From: Candidatus Jettenia sp.
GTDB lineage: Bacteria > Planctomycetota > Brocadiia > Brocadiales > Brocadiaceae
DNA: 64,000 nt
Assembly: GCA_021650895.1 (NCBI GenBank)
Contig: CP091278.1
Span: forward strand, 1,765,659 to 1,829,658
Direction: 5' to 3'
Of this stretch, positions 3,523 through 62,841 are shown in pieces. Within the stretch, counting starts at the first letter, position 1; every line of letters starts with the position of its first letter. Under the pieces are notes generated by a model that saw nothing but the letters and a program-made list of their open reading frames with translations, ran no database searches and had not been told where the DNA came from. The translations under genes were made by a program, and so were the position numbers.

Positions 3523-4317
3523 GTATAGGTATCCTTTCACATTAACCATTTTGAAAATCCCCTGGTTATAATTACAAAAACTTCTTTTTACGGTATTCAA
3601 TTGTATCATGATATTTTATTAAGAAAAATGAAAAACTGTATATCTTAAAGATATGTATCTCTACAAACATGCATTATTACTTTATAGGGAATCCGCAGCA
3701 AAGTCAATGATAAAACCCCTGTTATTGAAATACATAGAAGGCTAAGGTTTTGTATATCGTATTTTTCTATAAACATTTCACTCTTATGGGGTTATTTTTC
3801 AAAAAACTAAAGTGTTACATAATTTTTTATAAAGACACAAAATTTTGTGTCTCTACTACTACAAAATTTAAAAAATTTTCTCATAGCACAATACTACAAG
3901 TATATTGTATAATTACCAAATATTGTACCCGCGTAGCACAAGCAAGATTGGCTTCCTGCGTTTTCTGGACATCCTATAGTTTTTGAACAAACACTTGATC
4001 TTGAATACCTACAGGCAAGAGAATAGAAAGAGGCTCTATCGGAAACAATTAAATGTATAGAATTGCTCAAATAAGGTTATGAAATAGTGTAATAATAAAA
4101 ATTGAATTCCTTCGACCACTCTGGTTTTGAAAAAGCAAATCTCTTTGAAATCCAGATACATAAATAATAAAGTACGGGAATCCCTCATCCTTGTTTTTAC
4201 AAGGACGCGTGCCGGGCTTATCCATGAGGTATAAAAAATAACACCGATTGATCCACCCTTACTTTAGAGTGGGTTACAAGTTAGCAAAGAAAAGATTTAT
4301 AATTGAAAGGAAAACAC
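3523..4317. other. 795-bp gap, AT-rich, no intact gene
   Basis: Between the divergent TPR lipoprotein and KaiB genes. It holds a decayed coding fragment (about 3924-4092, listed separately). The segment at about 3795-3825 shares TTTTCAAAAAACTAAA and TGTTAC with the sequence upstream of the tRNA near 35815. The last part carries the ribosome binding site GAAAGG ahead of the KaiB leader at 4318. Confidence 0.5.
3924..4092 (+). pseudogene. Decayed gene fragment, family unknown
   Basis: Two frames join into one protein-like string: RVAQARLASCVF in one frame and, one frameshift later, SGHPIVFEQTLDLEYLQARE, a TAG, KEALSETIKCIELLK, a TAA and GYEIV. The residue pattern after the frameshift is that of a real helical protein, interrupted by two stop codons that are single-base changes from sense codons. 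No start or ribosome binding site survives. I do not recognise the family. Confidence 0.3.
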
Positions 4318-4371
4318 ATGGCAGATCGGAATTCAGAAAAGGCCATAAAAGACCTTGAAAAAATACTTTAG
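4318..4371 (+). other. Leader peptide or frameshifted N-terminus of the KaiB gene
   Basis: An ATG preceded at good spacing by GAAAGG opens a 17-codon frame (MADRNSEKAIKDLEKIL) that stops at 4369. One extra A in the run of six A at 4358-4363 would fuse it in frame to the KaiB domain as ...DLEKNTLGIFDLSNYFF. Non-cyanobacterial KaiB proteins often have a charged N-terminal extension of this kind. It is therefore either a sequencing error, a true inactivating frameshift, a slippage site or a coupled leader. Confidence 0.5.
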
Positions 4372-4382
4372 GAATCTTTGAT

Positions 4383-4796
4383 TTGAGCAACTACTTCTTC
4401 CTCAGGCTTTACGTGACAGGCTTATCAAAGAAATCATCAAAGGCCATAATGAACATAAAAAATTTCTGTGAAAAATATCTGGAAGGGCGTTACAAGTTGG
4501 AGGTTATAGACATTTACCAGCAACTGGAATTTTTAATGGATGAACACGTGATAGTAGCTCCCACACTTATAAAAAAACTACCACTTCCTTTGAAAAAATT
4601 AACTGGAGATATGTCGGATACGGACCTGATCCTCACCGCGCTTGATATAAAACCGCAGAAAGAAAAAGAGTACGATAGAAAGGGAGAGGAAGGAAGGAAG
4701 GAAGGAAGGAAGGAAGGAAGGAAGGAAGGAAGGAAGGAAGGAAGGAAGGAAGGAAGGAAGGAAGGAAGGAAAAAAAGAATAAAAGTAAAAGGTTGA
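4383..4796 (+). CDS. KaiB-domain protein with tetranucleotide-encoded KEGR tail
   Basis: As read, the frame has no ATG before the domain; TTG at 4383 (with AGGA nine bases upstream) gives MSNYFFLRLYVTG, close to the start of cyanobacterial KaiB. Family features are LRLYVTG at the first strand, a helix with S.KAI.NI, then LEVIDIYQQ, APTLIKKLP.P and GD.SD...L..LDI.P. KaiB is the thioredoxin-like, fold-switching clock or stress protein that works with KaiC and competes with SasA-type kinases. After LDIKP comes a tail of seven KEGR units encoded by 21 copies of GGAA. The gene ends seven bases before a PAS kinase, a usual partner for non-cyanobacterial KaiB; no kaiC is in the window. The upstream 17-codon frame may be the true N-terminus, separated by a frameshift. 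Confidence 0.82.
   Translation: MSNYFFLRLYVTGLSKKSSKAIMNIKNFCEKYLEGRYKLEVIDIYQQLEFLMDEHVIVAPTLIKKLPLPLKKLTGDMSDTDLILTALDIKPQKEKEYDRKGEEGRKEGRKEGRKEGRKEGRKEGRKEGRKKRIKVKG
4688..4771. repeat. Tetranucleotide microsatellite, 21 x GGAA, inside a gene
   Basis: 84 bp of uninterrupted GGAA. Because 84 is divisible by 12, the KaiB frame reads through as seven KEGR units and stops at 4794. Gain or loss of one four-base unit would change the frame, tail and stop position, only about 30 bp ahead of the kinase start. Tetranucleotide tracts of this length in genes are classic slippage (phase-variation) sites. Confidence 0.95.
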
Positions 4797-4803
4797 AGGA
4801 GTG

Positions 4804-7167
4804 ATGAGGAAGGAAAATAAGACAAAACACGAACTCATACAAGAGATAGAGGAGCTTCAAACCCAGCTCGATGAGGCAGAGGAAGCTCTTCGTGCCATAA
4901 GAAACGGAGATGTAGATGCCATCGTCGTTCGTGGTCGTAAGGGAGAGCAAGTTTACTCTTTAACGGGTGAAGAATACCCTTATCGCGTTATTGTAGAAAG
5001 TATAAACGAAGGAGCAGTAACCCTCACCCCTGAAGGCACTATTCTCTATGCAAATAAACGTCTCGCAGAAATGTTAAAATTCCCCTTGGAAGAGATAATA
5101 AGCCGCTCATTTTATGATTTCATATCGGAAAAAGACAGAGGTTTCTTTTCCGTACTCTTAGAAAAAAGTTTCAGGAAAGGCTCAAAAGGAAGAATTACCC
5201 TGGTGAACAGTGAAGATGCTTATTTGCCGGTTTACCTTTCGTTAAATTCATTCTTAATTGATGATAAATCCAGCGTAAGTATGATTATAACCGATTTAAC
5301 GGAAGCACTAGAGGCAGAAGCATTTTCTGATACAATCCTGGACCAGGCAGCAGAATCTATTATTGTTTGTAATGAACATGGCCTTATCACGCGGGTAAAT
5401 CCAGCAGCTCAGGCCTTATGTGGTAAAAATCTCTACCTGCAACCATTCGATACTGTCTTTCCTCTTACATACCGGAATGGAAAAGATGACAAACAGGTAA
5501 AAACCTTTTCCATTTCTGCCACCCTGCAAGGACAAACACTCAAAAACAAGGAGGTAGAATTTTGTGAAGACGGACAAACTCTTCATTTTGTTTTAAACGC
5601 CGGACCACTTACCAGCATTCAGAATAAAAACCTGGGTTGTGTAATCACCCTTACCGATATAACAACAAGTAAAAAGGCCGAAAAGGCCCTAGAGATAGAC
5701 CAGCAACGGTTCTTTTCCCTCCTGAACGAACTTCCTGGTTATGTTTTTCTTCAGGGACCCGACTATTCTATTCGTTATGCAAACCGCTATTTTTGTGAGA
5801 TCTTTGGGAAACCCGATGGAAATCCATGCTACAAAATAACCCAACGAGGCAGAAAACCATGTGAAAACTGCCCTACCTCCCATATCCTTAAAGCGAAAAA
5901 CAGAGCAATCTGGGAATGGACTTCACCGGACGGAAGAATCTATCAAATATATAACTATCCATTTATCGATATTGACGGCTCCCCCCTTACCCTCGAGTTA
6001 GGAATTGACATAAGTGACCACAAGCGTGCCGAGGAAGCATCACGTATAAGCGAAAACAAGTATCAATTACTCTTTGAGAGCCTTCCCCAAAGGATATTTT
6101 ATAAAGATAAAAATCTGATCTATGTATCCTGCAATGAAAATTTAGCCAGGGACTTACATATCAGCCCAAATGAGATCATGGGAAAGACAGATTATGACCT
6201 CTACCCAAAAGGACTTGCTGATGCATACCGGGAAGCGGATACGAGCGTTATAGAATCAGGACAGACAGAGGATATAGAAGAGGAGTATATCAAGGATGGG
6301 AAAAAGTTAATTATTCGCACGGTAAGGACTCCCATAAAGGACGAGAACGGTAATGTCCTTGGTATCCTGGGTGCATTCCTGGACATTACCGAAAAGATAA
6401 CCTTGCAGAGAGAAGCTGAACGATCACGGCATCTTGCAGCATTGGGAGAATTGGCAGCTGGTGTGGGCCATGAGATCAATAACCCTATAACCGGCATTAT
6501 CAACTGTGCCCAAATACTGTTTAACAAAAGCAAAGAGGAAAGCAGAGAAAAAGATCTCGCCAGACGAATTATCAAAGAAGGCAATCGTATAGCCAATATA
6601 GTCCATAGCCTCCTTTCCTTTGCCAGAAGGGACACACATGAGAAAAAGAGCGTGGTTAGCATTCGTGAAATCCTATACGAAACACTTATTCTGACGGAGG
6701 CATATTTACGCAAAGATGGTATCAAGATAAAGCTGGATATTCCACACAATCTGCCTGCAATAACTGTACATCCACATTTGATTCAGCAAGTCTTTTTAAA
6801 TGTCATCAATAATGCACGGTATGCCCTGAACCAAAAATATCCGGAAGCAAATGATAATAAAACCCTTGAGATTTCGGGTGAAGAAGTAACGATCGATGAT
6901 CGCCCCTACGTGAAGATGATGTTTTACGATCAAGGCATCGGTATACCTGCCAGAATAAAAGACAAAATAATGGAACCTTTTTTTACCACAAAACCTACTG
7001 GTAAAGGAACGGGATTAGGCTTAAATGTGAGCCACAACATTATCAGTAACTATCGTGGTAAAATTACCGTTGATAGTAAAGAGGGAGAATTTACCAAAGT
7101 TACAATCATACTACCAGCAAGATCCCAGTCTCACGAAAATTGCCAAAAGACAGAAACGGAGAAGTAG
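4804..7167 (+). CDS. Cytoplasmic multi-PAS histidine kinase, KaiB-linked
   Basis: 787 residues from the ATG at 4804; GTG at 4801 is possible, and the AAGGAG at 4796-4801 is unusually close to either. An N-terminal coiled coil (about 5-50, with AEEALRAIRNGDVDAIVV) is typical of kinases beside kaiB/kaiC genes. Four PAS domains follow (roughly 58-160, 170-290, 305-415 and 425-540). The transmitter has the phosphoacceptor at H556 (GHEINNP, NtrB-like), then an N-box (QQVFLNVINNARYAL), DQGIGIP and GKGTGLGL. There is no membrane segment and no receiver domain. The third PAS carries CYKITQRGRKPCENCP, a cysteine cluster that could bind metal. The partner regulator is not adjacent. Output unknown. Confidence 0.93.
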   Translation: MRKENKTKHELIQEIEELQTQLDEAEEALRAIRNGDVDAIVVRGRKGEQVYSLTGEEYPYRVIVESINEGAVTLTPEGTILYANKRLAEMLKFPLEEIISRSFYDFISEKDRGFFSVLLEKSFRKGSKGRITLVNSEDAYLPVYLSLNSFLIDDKSSVSMIITDLTEALEAEAFSDTILDQAAESIIVCNEHGLITRVNPAAQALCGKNLYLQPFDTVFPLTYRNGKDDKQVKTFSISATLQGQTLKNKEVEFCEDGQTLHFVLNAGPLTSIQNKNLGCVITLTDITTSKKAEKALEIDQQRFFSLLNELPGYVFLQGPDYSIRYANRYFCEIFGKPDGNPCYKITQRGRKPCENCPTSHILKAKNRAIWEWTSPDGRIYQIYNYPFIDIDGSPLTLELGIDISDHKRAEEASRISENKYQLLFESLPQRIFYKDKNLIYVSCNENLARDLHISPNEIMGKTDYDLYPKGLADAYREADTSVIESGQTEDIEEEYIKDGKKLIIRTVRTPIKDENGNVLGILGAFLDITEKITLQREAERSRHLAALGELAAGVGHEINNPITGIINCAQILFNKSKEESREKDLARRIIKEGNRIANIVHSLLSFARRDTHEKKSVVSIREILYETLILTEAYLRKDGIKIKLDIPHNLPAITVHPHLIQQVFLNVINNARYALNQKYPEANDNKTLEISGEEVTIDDRPYVKMMFYDQGIGIPARIKDKIMEPFFTTKPTGKGTGLGLNVSHNIISNYRGKITVDSKEGEFTKVTIILPARSQSHENCQKTETEK

Positions 7168-7309
7168 ATAAAACATAGTTACTCAAAATGATGTTGGATC
7201 ATACTTTTGTAGGGGAGAATCTTGCATTCGCCCGCATCTTTGAGTAATCCCATGCCTATACATTCTTCCACAAATCAAACCTACTCATGAAAAAATAGAA
7301 TCGACGATA

Positions 7310-8118
7310 GGGAAGACTTCCGCCTCTTTCCGAACCGTACAGGTGGATCTCTGGCCGATTCGAGTTCGTTTTCCTATGGACACTAGCAGTTCACCTTCCC
7401 TTGCTCCCCATATGCATCAAGCTAAGAATAGTGTTCCATAAAAAAAGGAGGTATCCCTCTGGAAAAAGAGCAAGGTGTGTCCATGTTCCCCTCTAATCCC
7501 CTCTAACCCCCCTTTAAAAAAGGGGGGAAAGAAGGATAGGTTTAGAAAAGGAGGAAACGAGGGATTTTCCCCTTTTCTAAACTTATCTTTACCCACAAGT
7601 CAGAGGGATAAATTTGAGTATTGCGATAGGATTAAACAGGGTGGCACGGACAAACCATGTCCCCGTACGTCTTGAACGGGGATATGGTTTGTCCGTGTTG
7701 TTCGAATACACCCGTGGATAGGAAATATACCACACTGACAAACAGAGTTTGTCAGTGCCACCCAGGAAGAGGCTTACAGAGAATAACAATTTCTAGAGAG
7801 ATGCCCCCGACGAGACATCTCTTCATGGTATTCTAAAGATGTGGGTAATGATAAGTTTAAAAAGGGGGGAAAGAAGGAAGGATTTCCTCTTGAGAAAAGT
7901 TTGCCTGATCGAAAATATCAAACATTTCCCCCTTTTCTAAAGGGGGATTAAGGGGGATTATGTTATTCTTCGCCGTTTCCACATTTTAGCTTAATGCATA
8001 TACCCTTGCTCCCCACCTCACCTCACGGTAACGCAGTTAGGGGTCGGTTACAGGGCGGAAAGCGTTTTCCCTGAAGAGGGTCTCTCACCTCTCTGGCAGC
8101 GCGCACTCTCAGGCGCAC
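7310..8118 (-). other. Possible group II intron remnant interrupted by a mobile element
   Basis: Read on the minus strand, the sequence starting at 8118 begins GTGCGCCTGAGAG and soon gives GAGGTGAGAGACCCTC, which resembles the 5' end of bacterial group II introns. Beyond the inserted element it continues to CACCTGTACGGTTCGG near 7350-7335. No reverse transcriptase or clear domain V is present. The assignment rests on motif memory only. Confidence 0.25.
7410..8002. mobile_element. Non-autonomous element with terminal inverted repeats and 12-bp direct repeats, copy 1
   Basis: Left end ATATGCATCAAGCTAAG and right end TTAGCTTAATGCATAT are inverted copies with one mismatch. The same 12 bases, CCCTTGCTCCCC, flank the element at 7398-7409 and 8003-8014 and look like a target duplication. 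The interior encodes nothing convincing. It is packed with hairpins: CCCCCCTTTAAAAAAGGGGGG near 7508, a 22-bp-arm hairpin at 7645-7697 (CACGGACAAACC/GGTTTGTCCGTG with a small mismatch), CACTGACAAA/TTTGTCAGTG at 7733-7757, and more CCCCC/GGGGG palindromes at 7860-7965. It occupies most of the 1.2-kb gap after the KaiB-linked kinase. Confidence 0.7.
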
Positions 8119-62187: not shown

Positions 62188-62841
62188 ATGAATATAGTAA
62201 GAACGAAAAAATATTATTTTTTCTTACTCTTGTTTTTTCCAGTTCTTATGAACACCGGATGCGCCAGCCTGTCAGCTAAAAGAGAATTAAGCAAAAAAAA
62301 TGAAGAAATTAAAGCAATCCAAACAGATCTTCAGGTTAAAGAAAAAACTATTAACGATCTTCTCAATCGTCTTTCCTGGAAAGATCAAGAGATTGGAAAA
62401 CTTACCGATGAACTCCGTACGGCCTCAATGACAATTAAAACACTCCAGGATGATATTGAAAAGCTCAAAAAGGTAGACCTCTTAGACCGTCTTTCTTCGA
62501 AAGATCAGGAAATTGGGAAACTTACCGATACACTGAAAACATCAGATCATTTGATTAAAACACTCAGAGATGAGATTGAAAAGTTCAAAAAAACAGATCT
62601 GTTAGAGCGTCTTTCCGTGAAAGATCAGGAGATTGGAAAACTTTCTGATGAACTCTACAGCGCTGATTCTAAAATTGAACTCCTCAAAAAAGATATTGAA
62701 AAACTCAGGGAAGTAGACGTGCAAATGGAAGAGAAAAAGAATCAAGTCGATACGAGTATTAAAGACACAATACCAGTAAATCCGTTAGAAGTAAAACAGG
62801 GAAACGGTACCATAACTGAAAAAAAACAGGAGGCAGAATAG
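62188..62841 (+). CDS. Coiled-coil lipoprotein with three 40-residue repeats (QseG position)
   Basis: 217 residues. The signal KKYYFFLLLFFPVLMNTGC gives a lipobox at C25. Residues 58-97, 98-137 and 138-177 are near-identical 40-residue units, each with RLS.KDQEIGKL and heptad spacing, so a long parallel coiled coil is likely, about 120 residues. The tail is hydrophilic. Its place between kinase and regulator is that of QseG, the outer membrane lipoprotein that interacts with the kinase QseE; the sequence itself is not clearly QseG. It may report envelope state to the kinase. Confidence 0.85.
   Translation: MNIVRTKKYYFFLLLFFPVLMNTGCASLSAKRELSKKNEEIKAIQTDLQVKEKTINDLLNRLSWKDQEIGKLTDELRTASMTIKTLQDDIEKLKKVDLLDRLSSKDQEIGKLTDTLKTSDHLIKTLRDEIEKFKKTDLLERLSVKDQEIGKLSDELYSADSKIELLKKDIEKLREVDVQMEEKKNQVDTSIKDTIPVNPLEVKQGNGTITEKKQEAE
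62359..62718 (+). repeat. Three 120-bp tandem repeats in the lipoprotein gene
   Basis: Each unit encodes 40 residues beginning LL.RLS.KDQEIGKL and ending with DIEKLK.VD or a close variant. Internal duplication of coiled-coil length; unit-number variation among strains is likely. Confidence 0.85.

What the first reader, a model, noticed from the sequence alone, without database searches (positions are those of the whole stretch)
4688..4796. Twenty-one GGAA units near the 3' end of a KaiB gene, just ahead of its kinase: possible phase variation
An uninterrupted 84-bp tetranucleotide tract is coding. Slippage by one unit would shift the frame, replace the KEGR tail and move the stop relative to the kinase start seven bases downstream, so both the KaiB tail and translational coupling could vary. 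The basic tail lies outside the KaiB fold, so the domain would survive.
Basis: partly seen in the sequence, partly recalled or inferred. Interest (0 to 1): 0.68.

Follow-up and report, generated by a model that had tools for sequence, protein, structure and literature searches.

The report
Variable repeat between KaiB and kinase
In an anammox bacterium, a stuttering four-letter DNA repeat at the end of a clock-family (KaiB) gene differs in length between close relatives, and instead of switching the gene off it mainly shifts where KaiB ends relative to the start of the next gene, a sensor kinase, so it could tune how the two are made.

Summary
The tract is real: 21 perfect GGAA units (4688-4771), coding, at the 3' end of a KaiB-family gene (4383-4796), just ahead of a PAS histidine kinase (4801/4804-7167). 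In 344 kb of this genome the next longest tetranucleotide run is 3.25 units. The organism is a Candidatus Jettenia relative. The tract sits at the same place in three Jettenia genomes with 21, 7 and 12(+3 imperfect) units, and in a fourth 5.7-kb contig with 10. That contig matches one of the three with 3 substitutions, and its only indel (49 bp) is at the tract, so the site varies within a near-clonal lineage.

GGAA repeats read KEGR in all three frames, so slippage cannot replace the tail. It changes tail length and the last 3-11 residues, and moves the stop among three positions: 21 or 7 nt before the kinase ATG, or overlapping it (TGATG). Both proteins survive every state. The known parallel is 'C-terminal phase variation' (Helicobacter canadensis, gonococcus). 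An effect on kinase translation is plausible (weak kinase ribosome site) but untested. The window genome has lost kaiC and kaiB1, and kaiB's native start is broken, so a neutral microsatellite is a serious rival.

The parts
4688..4771 (+). (GGAA)x21 microsatellite, coding KEGR repeats in all three frames
   Evidence: only site with 5 or more units in the genome
4383..4796 (+). kaiB2-like gene (137 aa): KaiB domain residues 8-88, then a charged KEGR tail; TTG start is the only start codon in frame after the upstream stop at 4356
   Evidence: PF07689 E 5e-19; start check; tail predicted disordered, pLDDT under 50 for residues 95-137
4318..4371 (+). relic of the native kaiB2 N-terminus (MADRNSEKAIKDLEKIL*), cut off by TAG 4369-4371 and a 5-nt insertion; intact in G002 and in G032:C94
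   Evidence: the same lesion in G001
4370..4374 (+). AGGAA, Shine-Dalgarno-like, 8 nt before TTG 4383
   Evidence: sequence; duplex energy -4.2 kcal/mol
4780..4782 (+). TAA: KaiB stop if the unit number is 20 (or 17, 23), 21 nt before the kinase ATG
4794..4796 (+). TGA: KaiB stop at the observed 21 units, 7 nt before the kinase ATG
4802..4804 (+). TGA: KaiB stop if the unit number is 22 (or 19, 25), overlapping the kinase ATG as TGATG
4787..4792 (+). AAAAGG, weak Shine-Dalgarno-like element of the kinase gene
   Evidence: -3.8 kcal/mol with anti-SD CACCUCCUU; the anti-SD sequence occurs in this genome, though its place in 16S rRNA was not checked
4801..7167 (+). PAS-PAS-PAS-HisKA-HATPase sensor histidine kinase (GTG 4801 or ATG 4804)
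   Evidence: Pfam; dN/dS 0.16-0.19 against relatives

Best explanation
The tract is a hypermutable tetranucleotide microsatellite fixed in position at the 3' end of kaiB2 in Jettenia. It works like C-terminal phase variation. Gain or loss of units leaves the KaiB fold and the KEGR character of the tail intact, lengthens or shortens the tail (4 residues per 3 units), swaps the last 3-11 residues, and cycles the stop codon through three positions upstream of or overlapping the kinase start. Because the kinase ribosome site is weak and KaiB-kinase pairs are commonly close or overlapping, the main physiological effect would be graded change in KaiB-to-kinase translational coupling, not ON/OFF switching. 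Shown: the tract, its position, its length variation and the reading-frame outcomes. Inferred: slippage as the cause, reversibility, and any effect on kinase translation.
For: Same position in G000, G001 and G002 and in G032:C94, with 21, 7, 12 and 10 perfect units. G002 and the 5,674-bp G032:C94 contig differ by 3 substitutions and one 49-bp indel located at the tract, while G032 elsewhere is about 75% identical to G002, so this looks like a misbinned Jettenia strain or very recent transfer. G002 also shows a second-order (GGAAAGAA)x3 pattern of the kind slippage makes. Observed stop-to-ATG gaps 7, 21, 15 and -1 nt. Kinase ribosome site weak, -3.8 kcal/mol; in G032:C94 the deletion places the tract itself as the ribosome site, -7.3 kcal/mol, 8 nt before ATG. 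A kinase with the same N-terminal motif was found downstream of KaiB in 47 of 79 loci examined, often within 25 nt or overlapping. KaiB core under constraint: window versus G001 7 synonymous and 8 nonsynonymous changes, P = 0.023 for excess synonymous; kinase dN/dS 0.16.
Against: No reads or isolates of one strain: variation is between assemblies, and short-read assemblies can miscount repeats. No expression data. The window genome has no kaiC and no kaiB1 and the native kaiB2 start is broken, so KaiB2 may be on its way out. ATG 4804 also has a stronger SD-like match at a poor 2-nt spacing (-6.9), so the kinase may not depend on coupling.
Confidence: 0.5

Rival explanations
1. Neutral microsatellite: the tract expands and contracts because the C-terminal tail of KaiB2 tolerates any number of KEGR units in any frame, with no selected effect on the kinase, which starts on its own ribosome site.
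For: Frame-neutral repeat, tail disordered and absent from other KaiBs, which end near residue 93. Unit numbers show no preferred frame: gaps 7, 21, 15, -1. GGAA tracts of 7 or more units occur at other places in 8 of 392 planctomycete genomes, so such tracts arise without KaiB.
Against: The tract persists at one site through three Jettenia species and through two divergent alleles of the locus (80-90% versus 96% flanking identity), while no other site in these genomes has five or more units.
Confidence: 0.35
2. Decaying gene: kaiB2 lost its function with kaiC and kaiB1, its start was broken, and the long tract is a by-product of relaxed constraint in a pseudogene.
For: kaiC and kaiB1 present in G002 between the same flanking genes but absent from the window and G001; shared TAG plus 5-nt insertion after the native start; longest tract is in the kaiC-less window genome.
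Against: The tract is also present where kaiC, kaiB1 and the native start are intact (G002, G032:C94), and the other kaiC-less genome, G001, has the shortest tract. KaiB core open with dN/dS about 0.29, P = 0.023; a TTG start with AGGAA 8 nt upstream remains.
Confidence: 0.12
3. Assembly artefact of unit number.
For: Repeat tracts can be collapsed by short-read assemblers; G001 and G032 are fragmented MAGs.
Against: Tract found in four assemblies, one a single 3.8-Mb contig; 84 bp fits inside ordinary reads; the G032:C94 indel also removes unique flanking bases that repeat collapse cannot remove.
Confidence: 0.03

Closest known systems
C-terminal phase variation by simple sequence repeats (Helicobacter canadensis, PMC2823697; Neisseria gonorrhoeae, PMC5320596)
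   Same: Repeat at the 3' end of a coding sequence; expression is not stopped; the C-terminal residues switch between three frames; in some genes one frame fuses to the downstream gene (NGK_1211/NGK_1212, HCAN_0660/0661).
   Different: Here the unit is a tetranucleotide that encodes the same peptide in all frames, so little of the protein changes; the likely target is stop-start spacing ahead of a kinase; the host is an uncultured anammox planctomycete. In the published cases named here the tracts are homopolymers.
Translational (ON/OFF) phase variation by tetranucleotide tracts, as in Haemophilus influenzae (PMC2651432)
   Same: Long perfect tetranucleotide tract within a coding sequence.
   Different: Tract at the 3' end, not near the 5' end, so no frame abolishes the protein; not a surface-structure gene.
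NadA of Neisseria meningitidis: expression set by repeat-dependent spacing (PMC2791445, abstract only read)
   Same: Unit number would set a spacing and so a level.
   Different: NadA spacing acts on promoter elements; here it would act on stop and start codons in mRNA.
SasA, the cyanobacterial clock kinase with a KaiB-like sensor domain
   Same: KaiB-type domain paired with a histidine kinase; the G032:C94 allele with one more unit would read KaiB in frame into the kinase.
   Different: Two separate genes in all four observed alleles; the KaiB part matches KaiB models better than the SasA model (59.7 versus 20.5 bits). SasA homologues outside cyanobacteria are reported to lack the KaiB-like domain (PMC5520375).

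Membership tests
C-terminal phase variation | Simple sequence repeat at the 3' end of the coding sequence | tested here: met
   Tract ends at 4771, stop codon at 4794-4796
C-terminal phase variation | Changes of unit number alter the C-terminus in each of three frames without stopping expression | tested here: met
   Computed for all alleles; only the last 3-11 residues and tail length change; in G032:C94 one frame class fuses KaiB to the kinase
C-terminal phase variation | Unit number varies between close strains | tested here: met
   G002 versus G032:C94: 3 substitutions in 5.7 kb, one 49-bp indel at the tract; species-level 21/7/12. Two assemblies only, not resequenced
C-terminal phase variation | High-frequency reversible switching in a population | not testable with these tools
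   Needs reads or cultures
ON/OFF translational phase variation | Some unit numbers abolish the protein | tested here: not met
   KaiB domain intact for every unit number
KaiB family | KaiB domain over the curated Pfam cut-off | tested here: met
   68.2 bits, cut-off 27
Clock KaiB (NCBIfam equivalog) | Score over equivalog cut-off | tested here: not met
   59.7 of 110 and 57.1 of 145.3 bits
Kai timing system | kaiC present in the genome | tested here: not met
   No KaiC-like two-domain gene in G000 or G001 (best 45.7 bits); present in G002 (E 1e-69) and others
SasA | KaiB-like domain fused to the kinase in one protein | tested here: not met
   Separate ORFs in all four alleles
Translational coupling | Downstream expression depends on upstream translation | not testable with these tools
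   Geometry and weak ribosome site are compatible; RNA around the start folds only weakly, -7 kcal/mol, z -2

The most novel reading that the evidence does not exclude
A stochastic repeat that switches a KaiB protein and its kinase between uncoupled, coupled and, in the G032:C94 allele, physically fused (SasA-like) states: unit-number change would convert a split clock-type signalling pair into a one-protein sensor kinase and back, in an environmental bacterium.
Probability: 0.1. Interest if true: 0.75.

Novelty: new variant of a known kind. Interest (0 to 1): 0.42.

Why it matters
Phase variation by repeats is studied mostly on surface structures of pathogens. A contingency-like tract on a clock-family signalling pair in an anammox planctomycete would extend it to intracellular signalling in uncultured environmental bacteria. 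It would also give a clean case where the repeat is nearly silent for the protein it lies in and acts, if at all, through stop-start spacing. Even if neutral, the tract is a ready strain marker for Jettenia in reactors.

Tried and rejected
A viral-contig scan for tract plus flank found nothing. Reading that the tail is replaced by slippage: rejected, all frames encode KEGR. KaiB-kinase fusion by slippage in the window itself: rejected, the kinase frame carries stops between tract and kinase; fusion is possible only in the G032:C94 allele. RNA hairpin sequestering the kinase start: weak only. First 16S-end pattern was too strict; a shorter one matched twice. Structure model was low confidence (mean pLDDT 58.6) and was used only to note the disordered tail; no fold search was run on it. 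Literature searches for anammox with KaiB and for repeats with translational coupling gave no direct precedent. Promoter scan upstream was no better than shuffles.

Full report
Observation. Window 4688-4771 holds 21 perfect GGAA units. They are in frame in an ORF whose residues 8-88 match the Pfam KaiB domain (E 5e-19), directly ahead of a kinase with PAS, HisKA and HATPase domains. The genome has no other place with five or more GGAA units. In 344 kb sampled from it the next longest tetranucleotide run is 3.25 units. Among 392 planctomycete genomes, 11 hold seven or more GGAA units: three Jettenia genomes at this locus and eight elsewhere; at the seven places inspected from the others no KaiB lies nearby and the longest tract is 12 units.

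Identity of the host. The closest named relative of the KaiB is in Candidatus Jettenia ecosi (91% identical), whose locus is the same DNA as G001. The window is therefore from a Jettenia-like anammox bacterium; the species was not determined.

Reading frames. (GGAA)n has a 12-base reading cycle, and in every frame it spells K, E, G, R in a circle with no stop. Slippage therefore keeps the tail. Computation over unit numbers gives three endings in the window: TAA 4780-4782 (tail ...KEGKKE, 21 nt before ATG 4804), TGA 4794-4796 (observed...KKRIKVKG, 7 nt) and TGA 4802-4804 (...KKNKSKRLKE, overlapping the ATG).

Relatives. The tract lies at the same place in G001 (7 units), G002 (12 units followed by three GGAAAGAA-type imperfect units) and contig G032:C94 (10 units). 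A more distant relative, G005 (Candidatus Loosdrechtia), has only the seed GGGAAGGAAGGAG. Other KaiBs end near residue 93 without such a tail. The four alleles have stop-to-ATG gaps of 7, 21, 15 and -1 nt.

Variation in a near-clonal pair. G032 is a Brocadia-type genome about 75% identical to the Jettenia genomes, yet its 5,674-bp contig C94 matches G002 over its full length with 3 mismatches and one 49-bp gap. C94 is best read as a misbinned Jettenia contig, or a very recent transfer. The gap falls exactly at the tract and removes two units, the imperfect units, and the flank with the stops and the weak ribosome site. One of the three substitutions turns ATGATG into ATAATG at the kinase start. 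In this allele the KaiB stop overlaps the kinase ATG (TAATG), the tract itself becomes the best ribosome site (-7.3 kcal/mol, 8 nt before ATG), and one additional unit would read KaiB in frame into the kinase. This is the strongest evidence that the site is a mutation hot spot. It rests on two assemblies, not on reads.

Context. A double-domain kaiC lies beside the kaiB genes in G002, G005, G011 and G016; in G002 the order is kaiC, kaiB1, kaiB2, kinase. KaiC was found near KaiB in 73 of 80 fetched loci. The window genome and G001 have the same flanking genes but no kaiC and no kaiB1. In both, the native kaiB2 start (ATG 4318) is separated from the domain by TAG 4369 and a 5-nt insertion; the only start codon left in frame is TTG 4383, with AGGAA 8 nt upstream. 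The KaiB core is still open, with 7 synonymous and 8 nonsynonymous differences between the window and G001 (P = 0.023 for excess synonymous), and the kinase is clearly constrained (dN/dS 0.16). Identity between the window and G002 is 66-92% from 4057 to about 6050 and 95-98% beyond, with 96% in the flanks, which suggests an allele exchanged by recombination; the tract is present on both alleles and so is probably older than the exchange.

Mechanism. The kinase ribosome site is weak (AAAAGG, -3.8 kcal/mol; a stronger match lies only 2 nt before ATG 4804), and a kinase with the same N-terminal motif follows KaiB in 47 of 79 loci, often within 25 nt or overlapping. Moving the KaiB stop between 21 nt upstream, 7 nt upstream and overlap could therefore grade kinase translation. 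That step is inference. The alternative that tract length is neutral cannot be excluded and is rated 0.35.

Known parallels. The class 'C-terminal phase variation' was described in Helicobacter canadensis (PMC2823697) and Neisseria gonorrhoeae (PMC5320596), including cases where one frame fuses to the next gene. The present locus meets its sequence criteria; reversibility is untested. It differs in unit, in frame neutrality, in the gene pair and in the host. It does not meet the definition of ON/OFF translational phase variation, of SasA (separate genes), or of a Kai timing system in this genome (no kaiC).

Judgement. The proposed consequence is half right: coupling may vary, the tail is not replaced. 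Interest is moderate because the mechanism class is known and function is untested.

Noticed in passing
G002:C4:386037-388132 (in L153) versus window 3734-4057: kaiC and kaiB1 are missing from the window genome and G001 but present in G002 between the same flanking genes; about 2.9 kb in G002 against 0.3 kb in the window.
   Followed up: partly
window 4057-7199 against L153 8729-11833: Identity to G002 steps from 66-92% to 95-98% near window 6050, inside the kinase gene, suggesting a recombination boundary.
   Followed up: partly
L154 (G032:C94), same DNA as L038: A 5.7-kb Jettenia contig appears to be misbinned in the genome named Candidatus Brocadia sp. MAG_8.
   Followed up: yes
window 7582-7866 (G000:C1:1773240-1773524): Copies of a dispersed repeat of about 130 bp found dozens of times per Jettenia genome.
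   Followed up: no
L097:5270-5390: A Syntrophus kaiB also has a repeat-rich C-terminal extension (GAAGTCAG-type, with a longer duplication) before its kinase.
   Followed up: no
window 62368-62707: Tandem repeat of a 120-bp unit, 2.8 copies.
   Followed up: no
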